The translations under genes were made by a program, and so were the position numbers. This document shows, in pieces, positions 14,541-30,215 of a DNA stretch of 44,527 nucleotides (positions are counted from its first letter, which is position 1; every line of letters starts with the position of its first letter). The stretch covers positions 1-44,527 of the forward strand of contig CAMLIY010000004.1 of the NCBI GenBank assembly GCA_946480125.1. Reading direction: 5' to 3'. The notes under the pieces were generated by a model. The model ran no database searches and was not told the DNA's origin. It saw nothing but the letters and a program-made list of their open reading frames with translations. This DNA comes from an uncultured Asticcacaulis sp. GTDB taxonomy: Bacteria; Pseudomonadota; Alphaproteobacteria; Caulobacterales; Caulobacteraceae.

Positions 14541-14555
14541 AGAGGGAGAGGGGGC
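14541..14555 (+). promoter_or_regulatory. 15-bp upstream element, copy 1
   Basis: AGAGGGAGAGGGGGC occurs identically at 14541, 18129 and 18718, each 66-75 bp before the start of a plus-strand gene (here the ParB-domain gene at 14621). The sequence between element and gene includes the hairpin CTGAGAG-AGAGG-CTCTCAG and an SD CGGAGA. The rest of the 14348-14620 intergenic region is AT-richer and probably holds divergent promoters, with short inverted repeats (TTGATCAA; GGAC-N6-GTCC) but no recognised operator. Function is unknown; a shared promoter or transcript-leader element is inferred. Confidence 0.65.
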
Positions 14556-14620
14556 TTCGCGGGTCTCGACGGGTTTAAGACTGAGAGAGAGGCTCTCAGG
14601 CGACCGTCCGGAGACTGAAT

Positions 14621-16726
14621 ATGTCGAAATCCCAGACCACTATCCCGCAAAATCGATCTGTCGATATCCCCTTCAATCAACTGGTCCTCTCTCAGGCCAA
14701 TGTCCGGCAAACCAAGACCGGCGTGTCATTGGAGGAGTTGCGCGAGGACATAGCTGTCCGCGGTATCCTCCAAAGTCTGAGCATTCGCCCGATCCTCGGC
14801 GAGGACGGAAAAGAGACAGGCCAGTACGAGGTCCCCGCCGGCGGGCGCCGCTTCCGCGCCCTCGAACAACTGGTAAAGGCCAAGCGCCTGCCGAAGACAG
14901 CTCTGATCCCATGTGTAATCCGCGACACCGCGGCAACAACATCTCGGGAAGACGACAGCATGGCTGAAAACGTCCATCGCCTGTCGCTCCACCCGCTCGA
15001 TCAGTACAGGGGCTTCCTGGCCCTCCGCCGCCAGAATATGACGGAGGAGGAGATCGCCGCGCGTTACTTTGTAAGCGTTTCGGTCGTGAAGCAGCGGTTG
15101 CGCCTCGCCTCGGTGTCACCGAGCCTGCTCCAACAATACGCCGATGAAGCCATGACGCTAGAACAGCTGATGGCATTTTCGGTCACTGGCGACCATGGGC
15201 GGCAGGAGCAGCTGTGGGATCTGATCAAGGAGGGCCAGTCTTACTTGAGAGACCCTTACCACATCCGCCGACAGCTGACCGACGCCGCGGTCGAGGCAAC
15301 GGATCGCCGGGCGCAGTTTATCGGGATCGAGGCCTATGAAGCGGCCGGTGGAGAAGTGCTACGCGATCTGTTCCACCTGGACAACGGCGGCTGGTTGCAA
15401 GACCCGGTGATGCTTGACCGTCTGGCCAATGAAAAGCTGGCCGATGCTGGCCAGTCCGTCGCGGGTGAAGGCTGGCAGTGGGTCGAAGTGCTCCTCAGCG
15501 TGCCGTTCGACCATTTCCACGACCTCGAACGCCTGGAACCGCAAATGGCCGATCTGAACGAGCGGGATAGCGCTGCGCTATCTGCGGCCAAATCGGAGTA
15601 TGAAGCTCTGTCGATCGAATTTGAAGGATGGGAAGAACTGCCGGAGGAAGTGGACGAACGCTTCGCCGTGCTCGAACGCGAAATCGAGCGTGTCGAGGCC
15701 CTGGCAAACCCCACCTTTGCACCGGAGGACAAGGCGAAGGCGGGCGCCGTCGTGACGATTGATCGCAATGGCAAACTGCTGATTCAGCGCGGCTTCGTCC
15801 GAACGGTGTGTGAAACCCCGACGCTTTCGGGTATGCTCGACGATGAGGACTCTCACGCCTTGGGCGAGGGCACGCCAGCGGTAATCACGATCGGTGGCGG
15901 TGATCACCTGGCCCCAGCGGTCGAGCCGGCGCCAGAAGAGGAAGGCGAGACCATCCGCCCGATGCCGGAAAAGCTGGTCCTGGAGCTGTCGGCGTTTCGG
16001 ACAGCCGCTCTGCGCGATGCCGTGGCCGGCAACTCACGCGTCGCCATGACGCTTCTGCTGCACAGGCTCGTCGGCGATACCTTCCGTCCCCGATCCGAAG
16101 GGACTTGCCTGCAGGCCTTCATCTCGCCGCCCCAACTCCTGGGTATTGCCCCGGGTGACCTTGGGGAATCCATCCCCGCAATCTCGATGGACGAGCGACG
16201 CGCACGCCTGGCCGCTCAGTTGCCGGTGAACGGCGAGGACCTTTGGGCTTGGCTCGACGCGGCAACCGATGACCTGCGGGCGGAATTGCTGGCGTTCTGC
16301 GTGAGCTTCGGGGTCAATGCGCTCGTTGAGCGGCCAAATCCCTTTGGTGCGGGGCCGACCGAACGCACAATTCGAGACCGCCTCGCCATGGCTGACCGGG
16401 TCACGGCTGCGACCGGGCTCGACCTGATCGAGGCCGGCTGGCGCCCGACGGCCACCAGCTATTTGGCACGCGTGCCGAAACCCCGCATCCTGGAAGCGGT
16501 CAGGGAAGGGTGTGGCGAGCGCGCGGCTCAGCTCATCGACCATCTGAAGAAAGGCGATATGGTCGTCGAGGCGGAACGTCTCCTGGCAGATACGGGGTGG
16601 CTGCCTGAGCCGCTTCGCGGTCCTGACGTAGCGGTTAGCCTGCCTGAACCCGACGTCGATCTCCCGGCGTTCCTTGATGACGATCAAGGACAGATCGAAG
16701 TCGTTTCGCCCATCGCCGCCGAATAG
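14621..16726 (+). CDS. YubM-like ParB/RepB/Spo0J-domain protein
   Basis: A 701-residue plasmid protein with a ParB-type N-terminal domain and a long C-terminal region. The N-terminus shows IPFNQLVLSQANVRQ, LREDIAVRGILQSLSIRP, the GGRRFRAL box, and MAENVHRLSLHPLDQYRGF. A helix-turn-helix follows (EEEIAARYFVSVSVVKQRLRLASVSP). This resembles the F-plasmid leading-region protein YubM more than a partition ParB, and no ParA is adjacent in its operon. The middle has an acidic coiled-coil-like section (residues about 300-370). It may act as a DNA-binding or nuclease-type protein during plasmid establishment; the exact activity is not shown. Confidence 0.88.
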   Translation: MSKSQTTIPQNRSVDIPFNQLVLSQANVRQTKTGVSLEELREDIAVRGILQSLSIRPILGEDGKETGQYEVPAGGRRFRALEQLVKAKRLPKTALIPCVIRDTAATTSREDDSMAENVHRLSLHPLDQYRGFLALRRQNMTEEEIAARYFVSVSVVKQRLRLASVSPSLLQQYADEAMTLEQLMAFSVTGDHGRQEQLWDLIKEGQSYLRDPYHIRRQLTDAAVEATDRRAQFIGIEAYEAAGGEVLRDLFHLDNGGWLQDPVMLDRLANEKLADAGQSVAGEGWQWVEVLLSVPFDHFHDLERLEPQMADLNERDSAALSAAKSEYEALSIEFEGWEELPEEVDERFAVLEREIERVEALANPTFAPEDKAKAGAVVTIDRNGKLLIQRGFVRTVCETPTLSGMLDDEDSHALGEGTPAVITIGGGDHLAPAVEPAPEEEGETIRPMPEKLVLELSAFRTAALRDAVAGNSRVAMTLLLHRLVGDTFRPRSEGTCLQAFISPPQLLGIAPGDLGESIPAISMDERRARLAAQLPVNGEDLWAWLDAATDDLRAELLAFCVSFGVNALVERPNPFGAGPTERTIRDRLAMADRVTAATGLDLIEAGWRPTATSYLARVPKPRILEAVREGCGERAAQLIDHLKKGDMVVEAERLLADTGWLPEPLRGPDVAVSLPEPDVDLPAFLDDDQGQIEVVSPIAAE

Positions 16727-16775
16727 GCCAGTAGGGGCGTCGTGGCAGCGGCGCCCCACTTCCATGGAGATTATC

Positions 16776-16997
16776 ATGCCGATTATAGGCCCCTTGTGCG
16801 AACGCCGCGTCGTTTTCCAGTTCCTCGTCCCCGTAAACGTCGAAGTCGTCGGCGGCGATGTCGTTTACGTCGCCGTTCTCGATGAAACCCCAGTCACCAA
16901 CCCACATGCGGTCGAGGGCGACTCCACCTACCTCAACGAAGCTGTCGAGGCCGCTAATGACGGCCAGGCATGGCCCGCCTGGCGCTTCGGCTACTGA
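16776..16997 (+). CDS. Small hypothetical protein
   Basis: A 73-residue product (MPIIGPLCERRVVFQFLVPV...AWPAWRFGY) with no recognised domain. GGAGA lies seven bases before the ATG at 16776; an alternative ATG at 16764 has no ribosome site. The preceding intergenic contains a hairpin with GGGGCG (16734-16739) and CGCCCC (16752-16757) arms. A strong terminator follows. Its acidic composition and position among leading-region genes recall small DNA-mimic or anti-defence proteins, but this is speculation. Confidence 0.6.
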   Translation: MPIIGPLCERRVVFQFLVPVNVEVVGGDVVYVAVLDETPVTNPHAVEGDSTYLNEAVEAANDGQAWPAWRFGY

Positions 16998-17025
16998 GCG
17001 AGCCACACAAATCAACCTTTTCCCT

Positions 17026-17051: not shown

Positions 17052-17065
17052 CATTGGAGGCAGAC

Positions 17066-17476
17066 ATGGCCGAATATTTCACCCACTTCTCGTGCGTCCT
17101 TCCGGTCGCAACTTACGCGAACGCGGAACGCGCCCTCGAACTCTATCACGATCTGAAACTCGAATACGGCCAGGACGGCATGGACGTCCGGTTCGTTGTC
17201 ACTCATGAGATCGGCTCCCCGGATATCCTTTGGATTCGCAATGACGAATCGGGGGATCCGGAACACGTCATCGAATTCGTCCGCCGCTGCGGCGCCGCGC
17301 TTCGATTGTCGGGGTACTGGGGCTTCGAATGGGCAAACACCTGCAATCGTCCGGAATTCGAAGCCTTTGGTGGCGGCGCGCACGTGCTGGATCTGGCCAC
17401 CGGCCGGACGGTCAACTACGTCGATACGCATGACTGGCTGGTGACGCTCGTGGGAGAGGAGACGCACCATGCCTGA
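17066..17476 (+). CDS. Hypothetical protein
   Basis: A 136-residue protein that I cannot assign. The start at 17066 is supported by GGAGG five bases upstream. The sequence (MAEYFTHFSCVLPV, ALELYHDLKLEYG, VTHEIGSPDILWIRNDESGDPEHVIEFVRRC, WANTCNRPEFEAFGGGAHVLDLATG) is acidic and globular, with no membrane segment. It overlaps the next gene by eight bases, so the two are probably co-translated. Similar conserved hypotheticals are common on conjugative plasmids and phages. Confidence 0.75.
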   Translation: MAEYFTHFSCVLPVATYANAERALELYHDLKLEYGQDGMDVRFVVTHEIGSPDILWIRNDESGDPEHVIEFVRRCGAALRLSGYWGFEWANTCNRPEFEAFGGGAHVLDLATGRTVNYVDTHDWLVTLVGEETHHA

Positions 17477-18113
17477 GACAGTCGAAATCACAGTCTACAG
17501 GTTTGACGAACTAAACGACGACAGCAAAACCCGCGCACGCGACTGGTATCGCACGGGCGCGTTCGATTATCCGTGGTTCGAGTCGCGCTTTGATGAGTTT
17601 GAGGCGGTTTGCCGGTTGCTCGGCGTCGATCTGCGGACCTCAGCAGTCCCGCTTATGGGCGGCGGCACCCGGAAACGGCCGAACATCTTCTTCCGTGGCT
17701 TCTGGAGCCAAGGTGACGGGGCGAGCTTCGAAGGGCACTATCGTTATCGCAAAGGCGCCGACGCGGATCTTCGCCTGCAATACCCCAAGGACACCGAATT
17801 GCTTGGGATCGCGGACCGGATCACAAACATCCAGCGCCGCAATTGCTACCAGCTCGAGGCGACTATCGATCGACGGGGCAGATATTGTCACGAATACAGC
17901 ATGATTATCGATGTCGAGCGGTCAAGTGCCCAAGGGCAGGAACCAACCCCTGACGCGGACGACATTTTGCGCGAAGCCATGCGGGATCTGGCGCATTGGT
18001 TTTACCGCGGGCTTGAGCACGAATTCGAGTACCTGAATTCCGACGAAGCCATCGACGCGGCTTTGATCGCCAATGACTGGCGGTTTACCGAAGGCGGCGC
18101 GGTGCACGGATAA
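17469..18113 (+). CDS. Conserved phage/plasmid hypothetical protein
   Basis: A 214-residue protein of a family seen in phages and plasmids, sometimes labelled antitoxin-like without proof. Typical features are the N-terminal ITVYRFDELNDDSKTRARDWYR, the central FFRGFWSQGDGASFEGHYRY block, and RGRYCHEYSM. The ATG overlaps the end of the upstream gene by eight bases. No catalytic motif or membrane segment is visible. The recognition is of the family pattern only; the function is unknown. Confidence 0.75.
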   Translation: MPETVEITVYRFDELNDDSKTRARDWYRTGAFDYPWFESRFDEFEAVCRLLGVDLRTSAVPLMGGGTRKRPNIFFRGFWSQGDGASFEGHYRYRKGADADLRLQYPKDTELLGIADRITNIQRRNCYQLEATIDRRGRYCHEYSMIIDVERSSAQGQEPTPDADDILREAMRDLAHWFYRGLEHEFEYLNSDEAIDAALIANDWRFTEGGAVHG

Positions 18114-18215: not shown

Positions 18216-18647
18216 ATGCCCGCTCAATATGAAACCGAACCCAATCGTCCCGTCGCAACGCGCGTTGCCGAGGCTGAACGCGAAACCTTCCTGCCTACAC
18301 TGTTCGGCAATCGTCACTTTCTCGTGGCGGAAAACACTCTGTACGGCCTCATGGGCTGGCTGAGTCCGCAGGACTATGGCGGCGGCTTTTGGGAGTTCCA
18401 CCAACTCGACGGACAGCCGCTCTACATGGTTCCGCCGTCAAAGGACCGGTATCGCATCGCCTGCGAAACAAATGGTTACTCCGGAGAGGTATCGTCTGAT
18501 GCTGCGGGTATAATCGTTACCCTGTTCACTTTCTCGCACCTATCGTTCAAGTTCGAGTCCGACCACCTCTCAGACGGCTATCAGCGCCTTTACGCATACG
18601 CGGCTGAACATCCGGAAGCTTCCGCCATCTTCAGAGCCATCGACTAA
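18216..18647 (+). CDS. klcA: KlcA/ArdB-family antirestriction protein
   Basis: Protects incoming plasmid DNA from type I restriction without DNA mimicry. The 143-residue protein matches the antirestriction family along its length: ETFLPTLFGNRHFLVAENTLYGLMGWL, YGGGFWEFHQLDG, LYMVPP, SGEVSSDAAGIIVTLFTF, and the C-terminal AAEHPEASAIFRAID. An SD TGGAGG precedes the ATG. It stands as a single gene between a shared upstream element and a strong terminator, and its location fits a leading-region anti-defence gene. Confidence 0.93.
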   Translation: MPAQYETEPNRPVATRVAEAERETFLPTLFGNRHFLVAENTLYGLMGWLSPQDYGGGFWEFHQLDGQPLYMVPPSKDRYRIACETNGYSGEVSSDAAGIIVTLFTFSHLSFKFESDHLSDGYQRLYAYAAEHPEASAIFRAID

Positions 18648-18806: not shown

Positions 18807-21800
18807 ATGAATGCCATGCTCCCGGCCGCTGCCTTGCTGGCCACCCAGCTCAATAGACCCACATTGGCCCGTCAGAGTGCGATCGCCACTGTCGACGCCG
18901 CCACTGCCTTGCTTCCGATAATGGAGGCAGGCGGACGGATCGATGCGACTGCCTTGCGCGCGGCCATGACCGACGCTTTTCATTCCAGCGACGCAGAAGG
19001 CGGCTGGGACTGGAAAATGGCCTACGACGCTTGCGAGATCGCGAGCATTCTGTTCATCCGCAAGTACGGTTCCGCCCTGAAACGTAAGGTGCCGCCCGCC
19101 TCGGCGTTGCTGCCAACTCTGCATAAGGTCGCGGGCCTGTTGCCCACCCATACACGCCGCTCACTGGACAGCCAGACCTACCAGCAGTTTTCCACGCCCC
19201 TACCGCTGGGGTGGGTGGCGGCAACAGCCGCCATGATCGGTGCGACCGACACCGTCGTTGAGCCGTCGGCAGGCACCGGCCTGTTGGCGATCCTCGCCGA
19301 GATGATGGGGGCCAGCCTCATTCTGAATGAGCTGGAGCCCGGACGGTCCGAAGCCCTGGACCTGCTCTTTCCCGACGCGGAACGTGCCCGCTGCGACGCC
19401 GCTCAACTCGACGACTACCTGGCGCCAGGTCTCTCGCCGACAGTGGTGCTGATGAACCCACCCTTCTCCGTTTTGAAGGGCGTGACAGGGCCAGTTCGGG
19501 GAGCCGCGATGAAGCATATCCGCTCGGCGTTTGCGCGATTGGCACCCGGCGGTCGCTTGGTGGCGATCACCGGCGCCGGCCTGTCACCTGACGTGCCGGA
19601 ATGGCGTCAGGCCTTTATCGACCTTCAGACCGAGGGGCGCGTGGTCTTTACAGCCGCCGTCGACGGTTCCGTCTATGCGAAGCACGGCACGACGGTTGAT
19701 ACTCGTCTCACTGTCATCGATAAGGTGCCCTCGGACAGCCCCAATATCCTTGTTGCCTCGGCGGGAAGAGCACCTGATGTCGAAACCCTCCTGACGTGGG
19801 TTGTCGATCGCGTGCCGCCCCGCGCACAGCTCGCTGGCGTAGACGGTTTGCGGCCGAACAGTAGCCGACAAACCGTCTTTGAGGCCCCCAAACTCAGCCC
19901 GTATGCGTCAAAGCCCTCAAAAACGGCGCAGGAAGCCTCAGCAGTGGAGTTGGCTTACGAGACGAAGGACTGGAGCCCCGAGGGCGCTCAGCGCCTCTCA
20001 GATTCGATTTATGAGCCCTATAGCCTGCAAAGCATAACCATTCCGGGCGCCAAACCCCATCCGACCACCTTGGTACAGTCAGCCGCGATGTCGTCGGTCG
20101 CGCCACCAAAGCCCACCTATCGCCCACACCTCCCTGTCGGAGCGGTGGAAAAGGGTGTTCTTTCGGATGCGCAGTTGGAGTCGGTGATCTATGCCGGCGA
20201 GGCCCACACCGCTCAATTGTCGGGCTGGTGGCGCGTCGATGAGACCTACGACAACCTGTCGGCCGCGCCCGAGGGGGCTGATGGAGCGTTTCAGTTCCGT
20301 CGTGGTTGGTTCCTGGGCGATGGCACGGGCGCCGGCAAGGGCAGGCAGTCGGCCGCCATTATTCTGGACAACTGGCTTAAGGGCCGCCGCAAGGCCGTCT
20401 GGATATCGAAGTCCGATAAGTTGCTTGAAGATGCCCAGCGCGACTGGTCTGCGATGGGGCGCGAGCGCCTGGAGGTGACGCCCTTGTCACGCTACAAACC
20501 GGGTGGGGCGATCACTCTGGACGAGGCCGTGTTGTTCACGACCTACGCCACCCTCCGTTCAGAAGAGCGCGGCACCAAGAAATCGCGCATTCAGCAAATC
20601 GCCGACTGGCTGGGCCGCGATTTTGACGGCGTTATCATCTTCGACGAAGCGCATTCGATGCAAAACGCTGCCGGCGGCACCTCGGAGTGGGGCGATGCAG
20701 AAGCGTCGCAGCAGGGGAGGGCGGGGCTCCGCCTACAGCACGCCCTGCCGAATGCTCGGGTCGTCTATGTATCCGCGACCGGGGCGACCAATGTCCATAA
20801 CCTGGCATATGCCCAGCGCCTGGGTCTGTGGGGTGGCGAAGACTTCCCGTTCGCCAATCGCGGCGACTTCATCTCGGCCATCGAAAACGGCGGGGTGGCG
20901 GCGATGGAGGTTCTGGCCCGCGATCTCCGCGCGATGGGCCTCTACACCGCCCGCTCCCTGTCCTATGAGGGTGTCGAGTACGACATGCTGGTCCATGAGC
21001 TGACGCCGGAGCAGGTGCGCATCTACGACGCCTATGCCGAAGCCTTCGCCGTGATCCATAACAATCTGGACGCTGCTATGTTGGCGTCGAACGTCACCGG
21101 CGACAATGGTACTATGAACCGCCAGGCCAAGTCGGCCGCCAAGAGCGCGTTCGAAAGTACAAAACAACGCTTCTTCGGCCATCTTCTGACCTCGATGAAG
21201 ACGCCGACTCTGCTTAAGGCGATCCAGCAGAACCTCGACGATGGCCACAGCGCGGTCATCCAGATCGTCTCCACGGGTGAAGCGCTAACGGAGCGCCGCC
21301 TGGCCGAGGTCCCGACCGAGGAGTGGAACGACCTCCAGATCGACATTACGCCGCGCGAGTATGTCCTCGATTACCTGCGCCATTCGTTTCCGGTCCAGCT
21401 ATACGAGCCCTATTCAACCGATGACGGCAAGATCGTATCGCGGCCGGCCTACCAGGATGGCCAACCGGTCGAATGCCGGGCGGCTGTCCGGGCCCGTGAC
21501 GACCTTATAGAGAACCTGGCCAGCCTGTCCGCCGTTCCCGGCGCCCTCGACCAGATCGTCCAGCATTTCGGGGTGGATTTGGTTGCTGAAGTCACTGGCC
21601 GTTCGCGACGCATCGTGCGGAAAGGCGAGCGCTATGTTGTGGAAAGCCGTCCTGGCGCTGCGAACTTGATAGAAACGCAAGCCTTCATGGATGATCAAAA
21701 GCAGATCCTGATCTTTTCCGAGGCCGGCGGCACGGGACGGAGTTACCATGCGGAACTGTCGGCGAAGAACAAGCGCCTGCGTGTCCACTACCTGCTGGAG

Positions 21801-23138
21801 TTCGGCTGGAAGGCGGATGCGGCTGTGCAGGGCCTCGGCAGAACCAACCGCACCAATCAGGCCCAGCCACCCTTGTTCCGGCCGATCGCCACTAATGTGA
21901 AGGCGGAGCGCCGGTTCCTGGCGACCATTGCACGCCGTCTCGACACCCTGGGCGCCCTGACCCGCGGCCAGCGCCAGACCGGCGGTCAGGGCCTGTTCCG
22001 TCCCGAGGACAACCTTGAAAGTGTCTATGGTCGCGATGCGCTGCGTCAGCTCTACAAGATGATCTACAGCGGCAACCTCGATGGTTGCTCCCTGCAGACG
22101 TTCGAGAAAATCACTGGCCTGAAGCTAGGCGATGAAACAGGACTGCGAGACGACCTGCCACCAATCAACACCTTCCTCAACCGTCTGTTGGCCCTTACAA
22201 TTTCGATGCAGGAACTGCTGTTCACAGCCTTCGAGGACCTTCTGTCGGCCAAAATCGAAGGTGCCATTGCATCCGGCACTTACGAGGTGGGTCTCGAAAC
22301 CCTTCAGGCGGTCAGCTTCCAGGTTACGGATCGGCGGGTCATCAACCAGCATCCAACGACCGGCGCGGAAACGACTATGATCAGCGTGCGCCGCCGGCAG
22401 AATACCGAGATCATGACGGTCATCGAAGCCCTGGAAAAGGCAGAGTCACGGTCGGGCACGCTTCTGGTCAATGCGAAAACGGGCCACGCTTGTGTCCAGC
22501 ACAGGGTGCGCGGCTTGTTGTTGGAGGACGGCGGCGTGGAGGATCGTGTGGTCCTGATCGGACCAAAACACGAGCGCTTTACATCCCTGGCATCCATGAC
22601 CGATAGTCAGTGGCGGACCGTAGAGCGAGCGGCATTCATCGAAGCCTGGGAAGCAGAAGTGGCCACCATCCCTGAATTCAGCGAAGACACGATCCATGTT
22701 GTGTCAGGTCTGCTGCTGCCGATCTGGAACCGCCTGCCGAGCGAGGGCGCACGCGTCTATCGGCTCCAGACCGACGATGGTGAGCGGGTGGTCGGGCGAT
22801 GGGTATCGCCGGCCTGGGTTGCCAATGCCAGCACGGTCGGCGGAATCAACCTCGCGCCAGCCGACGCCCACGCGGCCCTTATGGAAGGGAAAACCGTCCT
22901 GTCCCTTGCCGATGGTCTGCAGCTACGCCGGGCCCGCGTCATGGGCTCGAACCGCATCGAGTTATCCGGCTTCGGCGACAACATGCGTGATCGTCTTAAG
23001 GCCTATGGCCTTTTTCACGAGATCATTTCCTGGAAGCTCCGGATGTTCGTACCTGTCTCTGCTGACGGGGTAGATGTGTTGGCAAGGGTGCTCGACGCTT
23101 ATCCCATCGAGCGCGTCAGCGAAAAGGAGGCCGCGTGA
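18807..23138 (+). CDS. Strawberry-notch family methylase/helicase fusion protein
   Basis: A 1443-residue protein combining a DNA-methylase-like domain with an SF2 helicase. Residues about 150-165 carry the SAM-binding motif VEPSAGTGLLAILAE, and about 216 the NPPF catalytic motif of amino-methyltransferases. The helicase domain has Walker A GDGTGAGKGR at about 504-513, the DEAH box (FDEAHSMQN) at about 611, and the strawberry-notch helicase C half with LIFSEAGGTGRSYHAEL and VQGLGRTNRTNQAQPP. The start at 18807 has a GAGGA site. The family is frequent on phages and plasmids, where its role (DNA protection or remodelling) is not settled. It overlaps the Toprim gene. Confidence 0.9.
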   Translation: MNAMLPAAALLATQLNRPTLARQSAIATVDAATALLPIMEAGGRIDATALRAAMTDAFHSSDAEGGWDWKMAYDACEIASILFIRKYGSALKRKVPPASALLPTLHKVAGLLPTHTRRSLDSQTYQQFSTPLPLGWVAATAAMIGATDTVVEPSAGTGLLAILAEMMGASLILNELEPGRSEALDLLFPDAERARCDAAQLDDYLAPGLSPTVVLMNPPFSVLKGVTGPVRGAAMKHIRSAFARLAPGGRLVAITGAGLSPDVPEWRQAFIDLQTEGRVVFTAAVDGSVYAKHGTTVDTRLTVIDKVPSDSPNILVASAGRAPDVETLLTWVVDRVPPRAQLAGVDGLRPNSSRQTVFEAPKLSPYASKPSKTAQEASAVELAYETKDWSPEGAQRLSDSIYEPYSLQSITIPGAKPHPTTLVQSAAMSSVAPPKPTYRPHLPVGAVEKGVLSDAQLESVIYAGEAHTAQLSGWWRVDETYDNLSAAPEGADGAFQFRRGWFLGDGTGAGKGRQSAAIILDNWLKGRRKAVWISKSDKLLEDAQRDWSAMGRERLEVTPLSRYKPGGAITLDEAVLFTTYATLRSEERGTKKSRIQQIADWLGRDFDGVIIFDEAHSMQNAAGGTSEWGDAEASQQGRAGLRLQHALPNARVVYVSATGATNVHNLAYAQRLGLWGGEDFPFANRGDFISAIENGGVAAMEVLARDLRAMGLYTARSLSYEGVEYDMLVHELTPEQVRIYDAYAEAFAVIHNNLDAAMLASNVTGDNGTMNRQAKSAAKSAFESTKQRFFGHLLTSMKTPTLLKAIQQNLDDGHSAVIQIVSTGEALTERRLAEVPTEEWNDLQIDITPREYVLDYLRHSFPVQLYEPYSTDDGKIVSRPAYQDGQPVECRAAVRARDDLIENLASLSAVPGALDQIVQHFGVDLVAEVTGRSRRIVRKGERYVVESRPGAANLIETQAFMDDQKQILIFSEAGGTGRSYHAELSAKNKRLRVHYLLEFGWKADAAVQGLGRTNRTNQAQPPLFRPIATNVKAERRFLATIARRLDTLGALTRGQRQTGGQGLFRPEDNLESVYGRDALRQLYKMIYSGNLDGCSLQTFEKITGLKLGDETGLRDDLPPINTFLNRLLALTISMQELLFTAFEDLLSAKIEGAIASGTYEVGLETLQAVSFQVTDRRVINQHPTTGAETTMISVRRRQNTEIMTVIEALEKAESRSGTLLVNAKTGHACVQHRVRGLLLEDGGVEDRVVLIGPKHERFTSLASMTDSQWRTVERAAFIEAWEAEVATIPEFSEDTIHVVSGLLLPIWNRLPSEGARVYRLQTDDGERVVGRWVSPAWVANASTVGGINLAPADAHAALMEGKTVLSLADGLQLRRARVMGSNRIELSGFGDNMRDRLKAYGLFHEIISWKLRMFVPVSADGVDVLARVLDAYPIERVSEKEAA

Positions 23139-24181
23139 TGCGGCTCCCCGACGCAAGCGAGATTGCTGAAAAACTGGCTGCCCGCGCAGAAGCGGTGTGC
23201 CGAACCTATCTGCCAAAGGGCCGCAAAGAGGGCAACTACTGGAGAATAGGGGACGCCACAGGCGTCCCCGGTCAGTCCACACACGTTCGTTTGCGGGGAC
23301 CAACGGCGGGTAAGGGGGCGGCTGGACGGTGGGTTGACGAGGCCACGGGCGAATTCGGCGATCTTCTGGACATTATCCGATTGAGCCAAGGACTGACAGA
23401 GTTCCCCGCCGTTCTCACGGAAGCCGCGCGCTTCCTAAACCTGCCAGATCCTGCGCCGACGAATTCCAACAGCGAACGCCGGGAGCGTCCGTCCACCGAT
23501 GGCCGGTCGTTCGCGTCCCGCCTGTTCACTTCTAGCCGATCCCTGGCCGGATCGATAGCTGAAACCTATCTGAACAGTCGCGGCATCGTCTTGCAGCCCG
23601 ACTTCGATGCCTTGCGTTTCCATCCGCGCGTGTTTCACGGCTCAGATGCACACGGCAATCCGATCTTTTGGCCGGGGCTCATTGCAGCGATCACCGATCT
23701 GGAAGATGACCTGACCGGGGTGTCGCGCACCTTCCTCCGTCGTGACGGCCTGGACAAAGCGCCGATCGAGCCTCAGCGTCGGTCCAAGGGTGACCTTTTG
23801 GGCAATGGTACGCGCTTCGGCTTAGCGGCCGATGTCCTGGCCGTCGGGGAGGGGCTGGAGACCACCCTAACCCTGCGGGCTGCCATGCCCACCATCCCGC
23901 TCGTTTCGGCGACCAGCGCCAATCACCTGTCGGCCCTGCTGTTTCCAACCAGCTTGCGAACACTCCTGGTCATCCGCGACAACGATTATGCCGGCGATGC
24001 GGCTACAGACGCGCTCTTTGCTCGCAGCCAGGCCGCCGGCATCGATGTGCATCTCATTGAGCCCGAACTTGATGATCTCAACCGCGACCTGATGACACTC
24101 GGGCGCGGGCGGTTGATTCATCGTATTCGGACGCAACTGCCACAAGGCCTTATCGAGCGGTTCATGGCGGCCGGCGTCTGA
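23138..24181 (+). CDS. Toprim-domain primase-like protein
   Basis: A 347-residue protein with a DnaG/TOPRIM-like C-terminal domain. Motifs are LAVGEGLETTLTLRAA (the Toprim glutamate) and LLVIRDNDYAGDAATDAL (DxD metal-binding pair), preceded by a primase-associated N-terminal half (YLPKGRKEGNYWRIGD, GRWVDEATGEFGDLLDIIRL). The ATG shares one base with the upstream stop and follows AGGAGG, so it is coupled to the helicase gene. The pair recurs on proteobacterial conjugative elements and may act in lagging-strand priming or repair of entering DNA; this is inferred. Confidence 0.88.
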   Translation: MRLPDASEIAEKLAARAEAVCRTYLPKGRKEGNYWRIGDATGVPGQSTHVRLRGPTAGKGAAGRWVDEATGEFGDLLDIIRLSQGLTEFPAVLTEAARFLNLPDPAPTNSNSERRERPSTDGRSFASRLFTSSRSLAGSIAETYLNSRGIVLQPDFDALRFHPRVFHGSDAHGNPIFWPGLIAAITDLEDDLTGVSRTFLRRDGLDKAPIEPQRRSKGDLLGNGTRFGLAADVLAVGEGLETTLTLRAAMPTIPLVSATSANHLSALLFPTSLRTLLVIRDNDYAGDAATDALFARSQAAGIDVHLIEPELDDLNRDLMTLGRGRLIHRIRTQLPQGLIERFMAAGV

Positions 24182-24408
24182 TATCCAGCCAAATCCGTCT
24201 GCGGCCTGCCCGGCAATGTCACGAGAAGGCCCGCGCCTCGGCCTTCTTCAGAGGGCGACCGAACCCCAAGTCCATGCCGCTGGCAAGGCCTGTCGGCCTC
24301 CTTCGCTTTGCTACGGCCGGCGCACGCGCCGGTGCAAGCCTCATGGGCGAGGGGTTTTCGGCGCCATGAAGGCCGCGATGGCGCGGTCACATGACGAGGA
24401 TGCCGAAC
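24182..24408 (+). other. Hairpin-rich leader before the DUF2493 gene
   Basis: A 227-base non-coding stretch. A stem AGAAGGCC/GGCCTTCT (24224-24247, eight bases) may act as a weak terminator for the Toprim gene. Further hairpins are AGGCC-TGTC-GGCCT (24286-24299) and CCGGCG-CACG-CGCCGG (24317-24332). Its section from 24284 resembles the ssb leader from 26729 (GCAAGGSCTGT pattern). No ORF is supported. Possible roles are a structured mRNA leader or a single-strand promoter. Confidence 0.5.
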
Positions 24409-25386: not shown

Positions 25387-25441
25387 TTTATCGATCATAT
25401 TTGCCTATATTGTGATCGATAAAGGGAGCCTTTATAGATCA
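25387..25441 (+). promoter_or_regulatory. Fic operator: inverted repeat plus third half-site on start codon
   Basis: TTTATCGATCA (25387-25397) and TGATCGATAAA (25413-25423) form a perfect 11-bp inverted repeat with a 15-bp AT-rich spacer. A third near-copy, TTTATAGATCA (25431-25441), overlaps the A of the fic start codon. The arrangement suggests self-repression, possibly through the winged-helix-like C-terminus of the Fic protein. Confidence 0.65.
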
Positions 25442-26553
25442 TGGTCTGGAACTGGCAACTCGAAGACTGGCCCAATTTTAAATGGGACAGGGAACGACAT
25501 GCAAGGTCCGAAAGGGCCTTTATCGAGAGAGCTGGTGTTGTCATTGGCAGCGCGAAGCACCTAATCGAGCCTGATAGACAAAAACTTAGCATTGAACTCC
25601 TGAGTCACGAAGCCGTAGACACCTCCGCAATAGAAGGTGAGATGTTGGACCGCGACAGCATACAGTCCTCCATCCAACGCCAGCTTGGCGTCTCCATGGG
25701 GCGGCGCAAGGCATCGCCAGCAGAATCAGGTATCGCCGAAATGATGGTGGACCTCTATCGTTCCCTGGCCGCCCCATTGACCGAAGACGACCTATTTCGG
25801 TGGCACCGGATGGTATCGAACGGTCGCTCCGACCTCATCGATATTGGACGCTATCGGTCGGATAGGGAACCCATGCAGATCGTTTCAGGGGCTATCTATG
25901 AACCAAAGGTACACTTCGAGGCGCCCCCCTCCGAACGCATTCAATCGGAGATGACCCGATTTCTGGCGTGGTTTGCCTCAACTTCGCCGGCAGGCGGCAA
26001 CGGGATGTCGGCCGTTACGCGTGCAGCTATCACCCATCTCTGGTTTGAAAGCATACACCCTTTCGAAGACGGGAATGGCCGCATTGGTCGTGCAATCGCG
26101 GAGAAAGCTCTAGCGCAAGGGTTGACGACGCCTGTCATCACGGGCCTGGCCGGGACGCTCCTTAAGAACCGCAAAGGGTATTATGCCGCTCTTGAACAGG
26201 CCAGTCGCACGCTGGAAATTGACAGTTGGGTTTCCTGGTTTGCGGATCATACGCTTTTGGCACAAGCACGTCTCACAGCTCTCGTGGATTTCACGCTTGC
26301 GAAAGCGCGGCTTCTAAACAGCCTAAGGGGCAAGCTCAATCTCCGGCAGGAGAAAGCTCTTTTGCGCATGTTCGACGCCGGGCCCGATGGCTTTCTGGGC
26401 GGTTTAAGCGCGGCAAATTACATATCGATCACCGGCACGCCTACGGCTACGACAACTCGCGATCTGACGGAGCTTGTCGCATTGGGTGCCCTTGTTCGCC
26501 AGGGTGAACGCAAATCCACTCGATATTTCCTAAACCTCGCAACCGCCCCGTAG
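25441..26553 (+). CDS. Fic-domain AMP-transferase with N-terminal inhibitory motif
   Basis: Fic enzymes transfer AMP or related groups to target proteins. The 370-residue protein has the intact catalytic motif HPFEDGNGRIGR at residues 206-217 and an N-terminal DUF4172-type region with the inhibitory (S/T)xxxE(G/N) motif TSAIEG at 61-66, placing it in the class with intramolecular inhibition. The C-terminal 70 residues resemble a winged helix (LRQEKALLRMFDAGPDGFLGG, TTTRDLTELVALGALVRQGE). It is a single gene behind its own inverted-repeat operator and appears more AT-rich in places than its neighbours, suggesting a cargo gene inserted in the leading region. Confidence 0.93.
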   Translation: MVWNWQLEDWPNFKWDRERHARSERAFIERAGVVIGSAKHLIEPDRQKLSIELLSHEAVDTSAIEGEMLDRDSIQSSIQRQLGVSMGRRKASPAESGIAEMMVDLYRSLAAPLTEDDLFRWHRMVSNGRSDLIDIGRYRSDREPMQIVSGAIYEPKVHFEAPPSERIQSEMTRFLAWFASTSPAGGNGMSAVTRAAITHLWFESIHPFEDGNGRIGRAIAEKALAQGLTTPVITGLAGTLLKNRKGYYAALEQASRTLEIDSWVSWFADHTLLAQARLTALVDFTLAKARLLNSLRGKLNLRQEKALLRMFDAGPDGFLGGLSAANYISITGTPTATTTRDLTELVALGALVRQGERKSTRYFLNLATAP

Positions 26554-26870
26554 GCCCAACTCTGATAAAATCGACGGCCAACAGTTGAGACTGCGATCTT
26601 GCTGAGCCAGTCGGCCGGTTCGCAATCGCGTGTTTCATTTCACTACATGTGAACCCTAACCCCCTCCAGCGAGCCAGGCGGGAGTCACTCGATCAAGGAT
26701 GCGGACGTTAGGCCGTCCTGCGTCCGCCGCAAGGGCTGTGCCCTTCTCCACTCCGTTTCGACCCTTCGGGTGCAGCGCGCCGCTTCGGCCGGCCAAGGAC
26801 GTCGCATGATCGCGGTGAAGCCGCGGCCCGATGGGGATGGGCCCCAAGGGTGAACATCATGGAGACTAAA
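26554..26870 (+). other. Hairpin-rich leader before ssb
   Basis: A 317-base non-coding stretch before ssb. Its second half is very GC-rich and foldable: GCGGACG/CGTCCGC (26701-26707 and 26721-26727), AAGGGC-TGT-GCCCTT (26731-26745), ACCC-TTC-GGGT (26761-26771), and GGGGATGGGCCCC further on. The stretch AAGGGCTGTGCCCTTCTCCA followed by GACCCTTCGGGTGCAGCGC is of a type I recall before plasmid establishment genes. No protein-like ORF is present. A structured leader or single-strand promoter is possible. Confidence 0.5.
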
Positions 26871-27284: not shown

Positions 27285-27297
27285 GCCCGATAACCCG

Positions 27298-27344: not shown

Positions 27345-27650
27345 ATGTGTAAGGTTTTGAACAAACATCGAGACGGCGTGCCGACCGGCGCAATCTACAT
27401 CGGCCGGGGATCTAAATGGGGGAATCCCTTTGTCATCGGACGCGATGGTGATCGCGCGGCCGTCGTCGAAAAGCATGAACGCTGGCTGGCGGGTCAACGT
27501 GGGCTGTTGCAAGCGATTGACGCGTTGCAGGGGTATGACCTCGTCTGTTTCTGCGCTCCGGCCAGCTGTCATGGTGATGTGCTTTTGCAACTGGCCAATG
27601 CGTCACGGGACGAGCGGATTGCCTGGTGGCGCTCCATGAAGGCGGCTTAG
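27345..27650 (+). CDS. DUF4326 protein
   Basis: A 101-residue protein of the DUF4326 family: IYIGRGSKWGNPFVIGRDGDRAAVVEKHERWL, followed by LQGYDLVCFCAPASCHGDVLLQLAN. The CFCAPxxCHGD pattern is the family signature. ATG 27345 is preferred over upstream alternatives because it starts at the conserved N-terminus; the ribosome site is weak. The family is common on plasmids and phages and has no established activity; the conserved Cys and His residues hint at metal or nucleotide handling. Confidence 0.85.
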   Translation: MCKVLNKHRDGVPTGAIYIGRGSKWGNPFVIGRDGDRAAVVEKHERWLAGQRGLLQAIDALQGYDLVCFCAPASCHGDVLLQLANASRDERIAWWRSMKAA

Positions 27651-27934: not shown

Positions 27935-28258
27935 ATGCATAGTCGCCGAAACGATATTCTGACTGCCGTTTTTCAAACTCGTGGTCACGCTTTCCGAATT
28001 CTTGGGCGTAGCTCCGGCTGCCCGGAAATGGATGATATGACGCGTCAGTTCATTGCCGAAGATGTTCGTAGTCTGTCATGGACAGCGTTGAAGAAGCTTC
28101 GCGCCGATGCAGCGCTAGGAACGGCTGTTACCGAGAAGTGCAACGGCCTTTACGGCGCAGAATTCCATCTCGTACCCATTCGCCATGCTGTTTGGCGTAA
28201 AATGAACCGTTCGGTTACGCGCATCAACCGGTTGTGCGACCGCTGGCTGACAGGCTAA
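27935..28258 (+). CDS. Small basic hypothetical protein
   Basis: A 107-residue, Arg-rich product (MHSRRNDILTAVFQTRGHAF, TRQFIAEDVRSLSWTALKKLRADAALG, WRKMNRSVTRINRLCDRWLTG) with no recognised domain. The ATG follows TGGAG with good spacing. It is the last gene before the incC-korB operator and would be among the first genes to enter a recipient. A DNA-binding role is possible from its charge, but nothing more can be said. Confidence 0.65.
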   Translation: MHSRRNDILTAVFQTRGHAFRILGRSSGCPEMDDMTRQFIAEDVRSLSWTALKKLRADAALGTAVTEKCNGLYGAEFHLVPIRHAVWRKMNRSVTRINRLCDRWLTG

Positions 28259-28321
28259 GCGGGGAACAGAGAGGTAAGGGAGGGCCATCGCCATCCCAGT
28301 AAATCGCCACTTCCAGAATCG

Positions 28322-28380
28322 ACAAAATGCAATATCGCTTATACAAAGTTGCATAACGCTTAAGCGATATTGCATTTTGT
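28322..28380 (+). promoter_or_regulatory. Operator before incC-korB: perfect 20-bp inverted repeat
   Basis: The arms 28322-28341 and 28361-28380 are perfect 20-bp complements (half-site AATGCAATATCGCTTA) separated by 19 bp. The right arm plus spacer also holds CGCTTAAGCG at 28357-28366. TGCA recurs at 28328, 28350 and 28371, so the site is phased at 21-22 bp. About 31 bases match the virB operator, in the same orientation relative to transcription. It ends 13 bp before the incC start, where a bound protein would block transcription or initiation. Confidence 0.85.
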
Positions 28381-28393
28381 TAGTGGGGCGATC

Positions 28394-29212
28394 ATGAAAA
28401 CACTTGTGCTAGCCAATCAAAAAGGAGGCGTCGGCAAGAGCGCCATCGCAACCCAGCTTGCCCACTATATGCGTAGGCGCGGCTTCTCGGTCCTGGTCAT
28501 AGATCTGGACCACCAACAGAACACCTCGGCACCTTTGCGTCTGAACGGAAGCGTTCTCGAGGCGCCATTTTCTGCGACACGGTTATTCGAAGGCGGCGCC
28601 GACCTCTGGGCATTGGAAGGCACGTTCGCTCTGGTGCCCGGTGACGATGGCCTTTCATTGCTAGAACGCCAGCCGGACAAGCACAATCAGTACGCCGGCA
28701 ATCTCCGTGCCGCTCTCACAGGAGCGGGTAGATTTGACGCCTGCATCTTAGACACCAATCCCAATCCAGATATTCGTTATGCAGCGGCCCTTATCTGCGC
28801 CGACTATGTGCTGGCGCCGATCCAGCTGAACCAGGAAGCGGTGAACGGCATAGCAGGCCTTCTCAATCATCCCAAATACGGAATTGGGCGTATCAAAGCG
28901 GCGCTGAACCCGGGCCTCGAGTTCCTGGGCATTCTACCGAACCTTGTCGAACCAACGCCATTCCAACGCGCTAATCTGAGGGCCCTGATCGAACGGTTCG
29001 GCTCGCGGCTATTATCAGAGGAGGGGTCCGGCCAACGGCGTTTCGCGCATATTGCCAAACGATCAGCCGTGGCGGAGGCGCAGGCCGCCGGCGTTTTCCT
29101 CCCCGATCTGGCCAAGTCCAGTGCGCGCGAGGCCTGGCGTGAAATCAAACCGGTCTTCGACATGATCGTGAACCGCATGAACCTTCAAATAGCCACCGAG
29201 GCTTCGGCATGA
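28394..29212 (+). CDS. incC: IncC-like ParA ATPase
   Basis: Walker-type partition ATPase resembling IncC of IncP plasmids. The 272-residue protein starts MKTLVLANQKGGVGKSAIATQLAHY (deviant Walker A at the very N-terminus, as in IncC), followed by FSVLVIDLDHQQNTSAPL, FDACILDTNPNPDIRYAAALICADYVLAPIQL and FLGILPNLVEP. Unlike the other ParA in this window it has no N-terminal HTH. ATG 28394 follows a GGGG-type site; a TTG at 28370 is inside the operator and unlikely. It overlaps korB as ATGA. Confidence 0.88.
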   Translation: MKTLVLANQKGGVGKSAIATQLAHYMRRRGFSVLVIDLDHQQNTSAPLRLNGSVLEAPFSATRLFEGGADLWALEGTFALVPGDDGLSLLERQPDKHNQYAGNLRAALTGAGRFDACILDTNPNPDIRYAAALICADYVLAPIQLNQEAVNGIAGLLNHPKYGIGRIKAALNPGLEFLGILPNLVEPTPFQRANLRALIERFGSRLLSEEGSGQRRFAHIAKRSAVAEAQAAGVFLPDLAKSSAREAWREIKPVFDMIVNRMNLQIATEASA

Positions 29213-30132
29213 CGGTCTCTCTCATCGATCTTGGCGCTCTCGATGCACTCGATGGCCTGGACGGCGTGCCCATGGCCGGCAAACCCATTCTTTTGGATGT
29301 CGAGCTCATCCATGAAGACCCTGATCAGCCTCGCAAGGTATTTGATGACGCCAAGCTGTTGGAGTTCAGCGCCAGCGTTGCCGAAAGCGGTATCCGGGTT
29401 CCGATATCCGTCAAAACACATCCCTCGCTACACGGGCACTACATGCTCAATTTCGGCGCCCGTCGTCTTCGCGCTGCTATTTCCTGTGGGCTCAGGCAGG
29501 TGCCAGCCCTGATCGAAGAGCTGTTGACGGACTTCGATCAGGTCATAGAGAATCTGCAGCGCGCGGACCTGACGCCGATGGAGATGGCCCTCTTCATAGC
29601 CGACAAACAGAAAGAGGGAATGAAACCGTCCGAAATCGCGCGCCGACTCGGCTTAACACGATCGGCCATCAGCAAATACCTCGCCCTGGTCGATGCGCCA
29701 GCCGAGATTGAAGCCGTATATGCCGCAGGCCGGACCACGTCGCCAGATACGATCTATGATCTGCGGGCCGTCTTTAGCCGATGGCCGGCGGAGACGAAGG
29801 CATGGCTTGCCACCGACGTTGACGTGACCCGAAGATCGATCGACGCCTTCAAGCACAAGCTGGGCGTTGAAGGTCCAGACCTTCTGAACACAGCTGTCTC
29901 GACGAAGCCGCTATCGGACCCATTGGTTGTGCGCCGGCCCATCATTGTCATTCAGGTCTCAGATCGTATCGGCCAAATCGTTCTGACGCGTCGTGCTGTC
30001 AGCACTGATCACCTGCTGGTTAAATGGAATGATTCAGGCGAAGTCGAGGCAGTGCCGGTCTCGAGAGTGCATCTCGTCCGTCTCGACGATGCGAAACGAT
30101 ATGAGCCGGTCAATCGCGGGCTGCGGCAATGA
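29209..30132 (+). CDS. korB: KorB-like ParB/regulator
   Basis: ParB-family DNA-binding protein of the KorB type, which in IncP plasmids acts both in partition with IncC and as a global repressor of replication and transfer operons. The 307-residue sequence has the ParB N-domain (DQPRKVFDDAKLLEFSASV), the box ENLQRADLTPMEMALFIADKQ, a helix-turn-helix at about 138-168 (MKPSEIARRLGLTRSAISKYLALVDAP), TIYDLRAVFSRWPAETKAWL, and an SH3-like C-terminal domain (residues about 245-300) typical of KorB. Start and overlap with incC indicate coupling. It is the best candidate to bind the shared operator. Confidence 0.87.
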   Translation: MTVSLIDLGALDALDGLDGVPMAGKPILLDVELIHEDPDQPRKVFDDAKLLEFSASVAESGIRVPISVKTHPSLHGHYMLNFGARRLRAAISCGLRQVPALIEELLTDFDQVIENLQRADLTPMEMALFIADKQKEGMKPSEIARRLGLTRSAISKYLALVDAPAEIEAVYAAGRTTSPDTIYDLRAVFSRWPAETKAWLATDVDVTRRSIDAFKHKLGVEGPDLLNTAVSTKPLSDPLVVRRPIIVIQVSDRIGQIVLTRRAVSTDHLLVKWNDSGEVEAVPVSRVHLVRLDDAKRYEPVNRGLRQ

Positions 30133-30137
30133 CAGCG

Positions 30138-30215
30138 CCATCCAACTGTTTCGCATGCGAAATTATAGATGGATCAGTTTGTCTTGTAATGGTTTGGCAG
30201 GATAGGCCAAAGGCC
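30138..30215 (-). other. oriT: Candidate origin of transfer (oriT) with RP4-like nic
   Basis: In the 100 bp between korB and mobC, the minus strand reads CCTATCCTGCC at 30206-30196, matching the RP4/IncP nic core TATCCTG|C. The predicted nick is between 30198 and 30197 on the minus strand. Next to it are the perfect palindrome TTTCGCATGCGAAA (30149-30162) nested inside CCATC/GATGG arms (30138-30142 and 30168-30172), and the repeat GGCC-AAA-GGCC. Inverted repeats beside nic, directly upstream of mobC and the relaxase gene, are the expected oriT layout. Transfer would proceed leftward into the window. Confidence 0.75.

What the first reader, a model, noticed from the sequence alone, without database searches (positions are those of the whole stretch)
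14541..30215. Candidate conjugative leading region, with oriT, nick strand and gene direction all consistent
The minus strand at 30206-30196 reads CCTATCCTGCC, matching the RP4 nic core. If it is nicked there, the T-strand is the minus strand and the DNA from 30.2 kb down to about 14.6 kb enters first. Every gene in that stretch (korB, incC, ssb, fic, DUF2493, Toprim, strawberry-notch, klcA, YubM-like) lies on the plus strand and points to oriT, so the entering strand is the template. The content fits known leading regions, and several other genes here are unknown and may be establishment or anti-defence factors.
Basis: partly seen in the sequence, partly recalled or inferred. Interest (0 to 1): 0.75.

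Follow-up and report, generated by a model that had tools for sequence, protein, structure and literature searches.

The report
Leading region with orientation-locked DNA element
This plasmid stretch is very probably the part that enters a new cell first during mating, and it carries a folded DNA signal, apparently undescribed, that sits in front of such first-entry genes in a number of related plasmids.

Summary
CCTATCCTGCC occurs once in the window, on the minus strand just upstream of a NikA/MobC-like gene and a PF03432 relaxase. In all 10 related relaxase loci compared, the nic core lies on the strand opposite the relaxase gene (9 exact, 1 with one mismatch). The minus strand is therefore the likely T-strand, and 30.2 to 14.6 kb enters first. 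The genes there are on the plus strand, templated by the T-strand.

Beyond the finding: the core of this region (ParB-like, unknowns, KlcA, methylase/strawberry-notch helicase, Toprim, DUF2493) is a conserved alphaproteobacterial module. The helicase gene lies upstream of the relaxase on the same strand in 47 of 47 genomic copies with a PF03432 relaxase within 20 kb. Several relaxase types occur, but most copies share one relaxase family.

New: a two-hairpin element with strong covariation and no Rfam match precedes leading genes (ssb, DUF2493, DUF736, ArdC-like) by 49-91 nt in 12 assigned cases. In plasmid records, 22 of 23 copies at E<=1e-3 lie upstream of the relaxase on its strand (23 of 23 same strand). 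I read it as a single-strand-active promoter or priming signal (inferred); an RNA leader is the main rival.

The parts
30196..30206 (-). oriT nic core CCTATCCTG/CC; inferred nick on the minus (T) strand
   Evidence: exact match; same strand and place in 10 of 10 related loci, 1 with a mismatch
30207..30230 (-). conserved oriT flank with inverted repeat GTGTAATACAC
   Evidence: conserved in pSB102 and partly in others
30233..30805 (+). NikA/MobC-like relaxosome gene (weak family match)
   Evidence: PF21983 21 bits, below its cut-off of 27; position of annotated mobC in relatives
30793..31806 (+). relaxase, MobP1-like
   Evidence: PF03432 27.5 bits, over cut-off 24.6; NF041450 124 bits, below cut-off 200
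29209..30132 (+). korB (ParB/KorB)
   Evidence: PF08535, PF06613
28394..29212 (+). incC (ParA-type)
   Evidence: PF13614 (on the ORF from 28370)
28322..28380 (.). 20-bp perfect inverted repeat holding the operator-like sequence AAGCGATATTGCAT, upstream of incC
27935..28258 (+). unknown 107-aa gene
   Evidence: no Pfam match
27345..27650 (+). DUF4326 gene
   Evidence: PF14216
26859..27284 (+). ssb
   Evidence: PF00436 (on the ORF from 26850)
26724..26779 (+). core of the structured leading-region element, copy 1, upstream of ssb (outer stem extends to about 26709-26795)
24278..24341 (+). structured leading-region element, diverged copy 2, upstream of DUF2493
   Evidence: R1 25.1 bits, E 0.003; used in R2
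25441..26553 (+). fic
   Evidence: PF02661, PF13776
24391..25335 (+). DUF2493 (YAcAr, SLOG-like)
   Evidence: PF10686; relative downstream of the helicase gene in 71 of 80 genome loci, always plus strand
23135..24181 (+). DUF7146-Toprim_3, primase-like
   Evidence: PF23639, PF13362; relative downstream of the helicase gene in 80 of 80 loci, median distance 10 bp
18807..23138 (+). methylase/strawberry-notch helicase (Sno)
   Evidence: PF13872, PF13871 (on the ORF from 18741); invariant NPPF in an alignment of 8
18216..18647 (+). klcA antirestriction
   Evidence: PF03230
17469..18113 (+). unknown 214-aa gene of a large family, predicted fold without a PDB match
   Evidence: 899 homologues; pLDDT 91.7; no PDB match at E<=0.001
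17066..17476 (+). unknown 136-aa gene
   Evidence: 463 homologues
14621..16726 (+). ParB-like 701-aa gene (YubM-like by recall), far end of the module
   Evidence: PF02195; relative upstream of the helicase gene in 65 of 80 loci, always plus strand

Best explanation
14.6-30.2 kb is the leading region of a PromA-like conjugative plasmid, with a relaxase related to MobP1, probably of an alphaproteobacterium. The relaxase nicks the minus strand at CCTATCCTG/CC (inferred from conservation). The T-strand then brings in korB, incC, ssb, fic, DUF2493, Toprim, the methylase/helicase, klcA and the ParB-like gene, all templated by the entering strand. The genes look like an arrival kit: ssDNA binding, priming, protection from restriction, and regulation. 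A conserved structured element in front of ssb and DUF2493 may fold on the entering single strand and serve as an Frpo/ssi-like start signal for transcription or priming. That last step is inferred (about 0.42).
For: nic on the strand opposite the relaxase in 10 of 10 relatives. Same leading genes and orientation in DW145. Sno copies with a PF03432 relaxase within 20 kb: 47 of 47 in genomes have it downstream on the same strand; within 60 kb 50 of 51 in genomes and 14 of 14 in plasmid records. nic-like motif scored >10 on the opposite strand in 49 of 62 upstream stretches against 1 of 62 on the same strand; 27 of the 62 trained the matrix, so 22 of the 35 others. MOBQ nic also opposite in 4 of 4, one with a mismatch. 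Element: 8 of 16 pairs with two-sided change in 8 copies, 0 of 500 shuffles as good; covariation 0.334 against 0.108 in 36 copies. 23 of 23 copies at E<=1e-3 on the relaxase strand, 22 of 23 upstream. 12 of 12 assigned gene starts 49-91 nt downstream.
Against: No expression or nick-mapping data. NF041450 and NikA-like scores are below curated cut-offs. The five PromA-type relatives searched whole (pSB102, pAtCFBP6625c, pTer331, Acidovorax, Variovorax) have no element. One plasmid (W07) has element and Sno 28-34 kb on the other side of its MOBQ relaxase, and one genome copy (G037) runs opposite. No nic-like score >10 in 13 of 62 stretches. No sigma-70-like promoter was found around the ssb element. 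G.T and A.C cells are about equal (24:24 and 32:34), so the folding strand is not told. T-strand DNA folding is only modestly better than shuffles for the element (z -0.9 to -3.2). In the 36-copy set two of five measures are not exceptional (38 and 46 of 500 shuffles as high), and I drew the structure from the copies themselves. Weaker element matches include one opposite and one downstream. 48 of 70 relaxases form one cluster, so the counts are not independent.
Confidence: 0.85

Rival explanations
1. The element is an RNA leader in the 5' untranslated region of ordinary mRNAs of establishment genes, regulating translation or termination. Early expression comes from derepression by Kor-type regulators on double-stranded DNA, as reported for RP4.
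For: Element end to start codon is 49-91 nt in 12 of 12 assigned cases, a usual leader length. The RP4 authors attribute zygotic induction, which covers klcA and korA-incC-korB, to derepression (PMC7314908 passages). The window has an operator-like AAGCGATATTGCAT at incC and at the T4SS operon.
Against: No excess of G.U over A.C pairs. No sigma-70-like promoter found upstream of the ssb copy, though alphaproteobacterial promoters may be missed. No Rfam family in the places searched.
Confidence: 0.35
2. The element is a plasmid ssi (priming) site used by the neighbouring Toprim primase to start complementary-strand synthesis; its nearness to genes is secondary.
For: A Toprim relative lies just downstream of Sno in 80 of 80 loci; structured site on the entering strand; Iyer 2017 reads Toprim_3 domains of mobile elements as DnaG-like primases (PMC5512222 passages).
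Against: The short distance to start codons fits gene control better. Element and Sno occur apart: W03 has the element without Sno; W05, W06, W08, W11 and W16 have Sno without a match at E<=0.05.
Confidence: 0.2
3. The oriT is right, but co-orientation reflects operon history or replication direction and has nothing to do with entry.
For: Most Sno-relaxase pairs belong to one relaxase cluster, so the co-orientation could be inherited.
Against: Holds across the window's cluster, other MOBP clusters and 2 of 3 MOBQ records with Sno, with spacing from 6 to 33 kb, while the T4SS genes lie on the other strand here and in several relatives.
Confidence: 0.12
4. The 11-mer is a chance match and the true nick lies elsewhere.
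For: Not mapped by experiment; near matches with 2 mismatches are as common as by chance.
Against: Exact, unique, and conserved in place and strand in 10 of 10 relatives, one with a mismatch; in the related plasmid RA3 two-base changes at the putative nick site abolished detectable transfer (PMC4175270 passages).
Confidence: 0.03

Closest known systems
PromA plasmids pSB102/pTer331 (and IncU RA3) oriT-mobC-relaxase region
   Same: ssb-korA-incC-korB-(gene)-oriT-mobC-relaxase on one strand in pSB102; nic on the opposite strand
   Different: No Sno-Toprim-DUF2493 module seen in the annotated stretches fetched, no structured element found in the whole records; relaxases of pSB102 and pTer331 42-43% identical over three quarters of the length
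RP4/IncP leading region
   Same: nic core (recalled); klcA, ssb and incC-korB transcribed from the transfer strand (PMC7314908 passages)
   Different: VirB-type instead of Trb T4SS and no traK-L-M next to oriT (both by reading)
Leading-region anti-defence islands (Samuel 2024, PMC11541004)
   Same: SSB, antirestriction and methylase genes oriented for transcription from the T-strand
   Different: 'Strawberry' and 'Alphaproteobacteria' do not occur in its main text; supplements not seen
Frpo/ssi single-stranded promoters of F-type plasmids
   Same: Structured site upstream of ssb and other leading genes, fixed orientation
   Different: No -35/-10 found at the ssb copy; two-hairpin three-way structure; similarity to F Frpo not tested
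Asticcacaulis plasmid pASDW145_2
   Same: Nearest relative found: same module order, 83% identical Sno, two element copies at E<=1e-6, nic core
   Different: korB/incC lie beyond a block of five opposite-strand genes; fic replaced by an opposite-strand gene

Membership tests
Conjugative leading region | lies on the side of nic that enters first | tested here: met
   nic strand by conservation in 10 of 10 loci; nick itself not mapped
Conjugative leading region | genes use the T-strand as template | tested here: met
   the 13 genes listed are plus strand
Conjugative leading region | early expression in recipients | not testable with these tools
   needs mating and RNA
RP4/P-type oriT | nic core TATCCTG/C beside relaxosome genes | tested here: met
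   core recalled from knowledge, related putative nick sites in PMC4175270 (passages)
MobP1 family relaxase (NF041450) | score over curated cut-off 200 | tested here: not met
   124 bits, E 8e-36; so not filed as a member, only as related
Relaxase PF03432 | score over gathering cut-off | tested here: met
   27.5 against 24.6 bits
PromA plasmid backbone | incC-korB-oriT-mobC-relaxase order | tested here: met
PromA plasmid backbone | homologous replication protein | not tested
   RepA not compared
Frpo/ssi single-stranded promoter | conserved secondary structure upstream of leading genes | tested here: met
Frpo/ssi single-stranded promoter | -35/-10 elements in the folded strand | tested here: not met
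   0 sigma-70-like sites at 26540-26870; not filed as Frpo
Frpo/ssi single-stranded promoter | transcription or priming from ssDNA | not testable with these tools
   needs in vitro assay
DNA methylase-helicase dyad (DarB-like, polyvalent) | adenine-methylase motif plus SNF2/Sno helicase in one protein | tested here: met
   NPPF invariant in 8, AAA_34 and Helicase_C_4; no methylase Pfam match, padloc mad2 match E 2.2e-10

The most novel reading that the evidence does not exclude
Alphaproteobacterial conjugative elements of both MOBP and MOBQ type share their own structured signal, different in shape from F's Frpo, that folds on the entering single strand and starts expression (or priming) of leading genes before the second strand is made. 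It would be a lineage-wide counterpart of Frpo/ssi that marks leading regions and their unknown anti-defence genes.
Probability: 0.42. Interest if true: 0.82.

Novelty: new variant of a known kind. Interest (0 to 1): 0.62.

Why it matters
How genes on entering single-stranded DNA are switched on is known mainly from F-type plasmids. A covarying element in fixed orientation in front of first-entry genes in rhizobia, sphingomonads and roseobacters gives a concrete sequence to test for single-strand activity, and a marker to find leading regions and their unknown genes. The conserved Sno-Toprim-DUF2493 module, found with several relaxase types, is a candidate general arrival kit that links a methylase-helicase and a primase to plasmid establishment.

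Tried and rejected
Whole-genome context: no genome is held for the window. RP4-like Trb T4SS: rejected on reading, since the genes look VirB-type; not tested by profiles. Rfam: no match in the window at gathering; on 9 element loci only one weak unrelated match (M23, E 0.63). AGAGGGAGAGGGGGC as a general leading-region motif: three copies in the window and three in DW145, but 2 hits in 1.66 Mb of 80 Sno loci, so set aside. Frpo by the incC-upstream hairpin (z -7.6): read instead as operator repeats, because the same 14-mer recurs at the T4SS operon. RNA or DNA by G.U against A.C: inconclusive. Folds of the two unknown genes: 214-aa protein no PDB match (best E 0.22); 136-aa protein weakly like LsrG-type and monooxygenase-like small proteins (best E 0.012). 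PDB by sequence: none for the 214-aa protein or the relaxase. Paper searches: Frpo, ssDNA, leading region, Rhizobium (3 of 4 terms): 17 papers, 'rhizobium' 0 times in all 15 listed; DUF736+DUF2493+plasmid, 0 papers; strawberry notch+plasmid+conjugative, 1 paper; Alphaproteobacteria with leading region or single-stranded promoter, 14 papers, listing only apart from PMC7314908; rhizobial plasmid/ArdC/oriT/leading region, 3 papers, listing only; strawberry notch with methyltransferase, helicase or Rhizobium, 8 listed of 161. The claim 'undescribed' rests only on these and on Rfam.

Rows dropped before counts: 50 of 80 Sno loci were given to (mostly longer contigs, chosen by me); 20 fragment rows were left out of the 85 copies. 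One of these, G037:C7 minus, lies 2.9 kb upstream of that contig's relaxase on its strand, so the G037 exception may be a second copy. 50 of the 51 genome pairs within 60 kb were fetched for nic, G037 left out. R2 was built on all 36 copies of A6, including doubtful ones such as L178 and L189. In one search downstream genes were recognised by eye, not by a profile, in 9 of 24 loci; the other 15 were unclear, and several of those matches overlap long ORFs and may be chance. The 12 distances are copies for which I could assign a start; the ssb start in the window (26859) is my choice.
Full report
1. The oriT. CCTATCCTGCC is exact on the minus strand at 30206-30196, the only exact copy in 44.5 kb; near matches with 2 mismatches are no more frequent than in shuffles, so the case rests on exactness, place and conservation. 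It lies 26 bp before a NikA-like gene (30233) that overlaps a PF03432 relaxase (30793-31806). The relaxase's best plasmid matches are DW145 (47%) and MobP1/TraS-type relaxases, but its NF041450 score is below the curated cut-off. In 10 loci with related relaxases (window, DW145, pSB102, S. yanoikuyae, B. elkanii, S. paeninsulae, pAtCFBP6625c, pTer331, Acidovorax, Variovorax) the core TATCCTGC lies 36-283 bp upstream of the mobC-like gene, on the strand opposite to it; 9 are exact and S. yanoikuyae has one mismatch (560 bp searched in each). For pSB102 the site (11426) falls inside the oriT interval that the RA3 authors aligned (11373-11494; PMC4175270, passages); they also report that two-base changes at RA3's putative nick site gave no detectable transfer. 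By the RP4 rule (recalled) the nick is between G and C, so the minus strand enters 5' first toward lower coordinates.

2. The leading region. Thirteen plus-strand genes cover 88% of 14541-30215. Below 14.4 kb the par/rep genes and a T4SS that reads as VirB-type are on the minus strand (T4SS and rep names by reading only). The nearest plasmid found, pASDW145_2 of Asticcacaulis, has ParB-like, two unknowns, KlcA, Sno (83% identical), Toprim, DUF2493, SSB and DUF4326 in the same order, all pointing to oriT, with one opposite gene where fic stands here. pSB102 has ssb-korA-incC-korB-gene-oriT-mobC-like gene-traS.

3. A conserved module beyond this plasmid. In those 80 loci, relatives of the window's proteins, where found, lie on the Sno strand and on one side: ParB-like 65 of 65 upstream, 168-aa ORF 39 of 39 upstream, 214-aa 27 of 27 upstream, KlcA 8 of 8 upstream, Toprim 80 of 80 downstream (median 10 bp), DUF2493 71 of 71 downstream, SSB 8 of 8 downstream. 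Against this, DUF4326 (4) is upstream, unlike in the window; Fic (1) is on the opposite strand; IncC is found once; KorB, NikA, the relaxase and the 107-aa gene were not found (loci are cut at contig ends, so absence means little). For 50 of the 80 loci the whole genomes (49) were searched. Of 85 Sno copies, 57 share a contig with a PF03432 relaxase. Within 20 kb, 47 of 47 have it downstream on the same strand; within 60 kb 50 of 51; beyond 60 kb 0 of 6. In 18 plasmid records, 15 of 19 copies share the record with PF03432; within 60 kb 14 of 14, the fifteenth lying 98 kb upstream. Relaxases of this comparison plus others fall into 10 clusters at 40% identity (48, 10, 3, 2, 2 and five singles of 70), so most genomic cases are one relaxase family and are not independent.

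4. Nick strand in the other relaxase types. Upstream of 62 relaxases (50 genomic, 12 plasmid) exact TATCCTG occurs 19 times on the opposite and 3 times on the same strand. A matrix trained on 27 sites scores above 10 on the opposite strand in 49 of 62 stretches (22 of the 35 not used for training) and on the same strand in 1 of 62; in 13 of 62 no site scored above 10. In 4 MOBQ plasmids the Q-type core TAAnTGCGCCC (recalled consensus) lies 116-156 bp upstream of the relaxase domain on the opposite strand (3 exact, 1 with a mismatch). So the Sno side is the leading side in most cases. The exceptions are W07, whose Sno is 28 kb on the other side of its MOBQ relaxase though on the same strand, and G037; W08 and W15 have Sno upstream of their MOBQ relaxase.

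5. A structured element. The gap before ssb (26590-26868) matches 26 plasmid records, in unannotated gaps in 23 of the 25 listed. A 71-bp copy from Acuticoccus matches 160 of 72,556 records, many of them Rhizobium; in all 60 rows listed the feature column reads 'none' or that the record has no annotation. Eight copies align to a three-way structure that I drew from them: an outer stem, hairpin 1 (AAGGGC/GCCCTT type), a conserved linker CTCCACTGCGTTGCG, and hairpin 2 (ACCC/GGGT type). 91.4% of cells pair (shuffled 77.7%), 8 of 16 pairs change on both sides (0 of 500 shuffles as many), and sliding the partner destroys it. With flanks, 17 of 25 predicted pairs have two-sided changes, extending the stem. 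With 36 copies on a model-fitted alignment, covariation is 0.334 against 0.108 shuffled and no shuffle reaches the paired cells, but the number of pairs with two-sided change (10 against 8.6) and of pair types is reached by 38 and 46 of 500 shuffles. A diverged second copy precedes DUF2493 at 24278-24341 (25.1 bits).

6. Where the element sits. In 24 sources 14 matches at E<=1 (8 of them the copies the model was built from) lie on the strand of the relaxase. In the 80 Sno loci 14 of 14 lie on the Sno strand, but 12 of these have E>0.01 and one lies inside the Sno gene. In 27 whole plasmid records model R2 gives 23 matches at E<=1e-3, 11 of them copies used to build R2. On records with PF03432, 16 of 16 lie on the relaxase strand, 2.9-39 kb upstream. 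Of 7 on MOBQ records, 6 are upstream on the relaxase strand and 1 (W07) is on the same strand but 34 kb downstream (by reading the coordinates). Of the 12 copies not used in R2, 11 are upstream on the relaxase strand, W07 being the exception. Eight weaker matches (E 0.003-0.04) are mixed: 4 same strand and upstream, 1 opposite, 1 same strand but downstream, 2 without PF03432, of which the one on W15 is opposite to its MOBQ relaxase. The five PromA-type relatives have none. In 385 genomes drawn from the class of G002, 18 have a match at E<=0.01, 24 matches in all. Read by eye, the downstream gene is DUF2493-like in 5, ArdC-like in 2, DUF736-like in 1 and ParB-like in 1 of the 24; 15 are unclear and some may be chance. 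These are the same sorts of genes as in annotated plasmids. Element end to assigned start codon is 49-91 nt in 12 of 12 cases that I could assign.

7. Mechanism. Shown: conserved nic place and strand, T-strand-templated genes, conserved module, structured element in fixed orientation just before leading genes. Inferred: the nick itself, early expression, and that the element acts as single-stranded DNA. The folding strand is not settled: G.T and A.C cells are about equal, DNA folding of the T-strand is only modestly better than shuffles, and no sigma-70-like promoter is seen near the ssb copy. The main rival is an RNA leader plus Kor-type derepression, as described for RP4, where klcA and korA-incC-korB are induced and transcribed from the transfer strand (PMC7314908 passages). 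The window has an operator-like 14-mer twice before incC and once exactly (once with a mismatch) before the T4SS genes, which fits such a circuit. Both could act together.

8. Known or new. Leading regions rich in anti-defence genes on the T-strand, with Frpo-type promoters, are known (PMC11541004: outline, sections 5, 6 and 8, and passages seen). Methylase-SNF2/Sno proteins of mobile elements were proposed to act on transferred DNA (PMC5512222 passages). New here, as far as Rfam and the paper searches reach: the alphaproteobacterial module's place and orientation with several relaxase types, and the structured element. The finding as given is a new member of a known kind; the element makes it a new variant.

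Noticed in passing
9639-9673 and 28327-28375: Operator-like AAGCGATATTGCAT, exact twice before incC and once (plus a 1-mismatch copy) before the minus-strand T4SS genes; probable shared Kor-type regulation.
   Followed up: partly
14541, 18129, 18718: AGAGGGAGAGGGGGC repeated upstream of the ParB-like, klcA and Sno genes; three similar copies at the same places in DW145, but 2 hits in 80 genomic Sno loci.
   Followed up: partly
14568-14616: Conserved stretch just before the ParB-like gene with matches in dozens of Sno loci, sometimes twice per locus.
   Followed up: no
17469-18113: 214-aa protein: 899 homologues, no Pfam domain, confident predicted fold (pLDDT 91.7) with no PDB match at E<=0.001. 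Several sources name it 'antitoxin of toxin-antitoxin stability system'; I saw no support for that.
   Followed up: partly
32303-43175: Lagging-side cargo for DNA damage: two SRAP genes and Ku, and genes that read like imuA-imuB-dnaE2; DW145 and S. yanoikuyae carry error-prone polymerase genes near their relaxase too.
   Followed up: no
L168 4003-6701 (R. leguminosarum pRlvC): Three element copies in a row, each 58-74 nt before an ArdC-like, a DUF736 and an unknown gene, upstream of a MOBQ relaxase.
   Followed up: partly
25441-26553: Fic protein close to padloc SoFic (E 8.5e-37) inside the leading region; DW145 has an opposite-strand hypothetical gene there instead.
   Followed up: no
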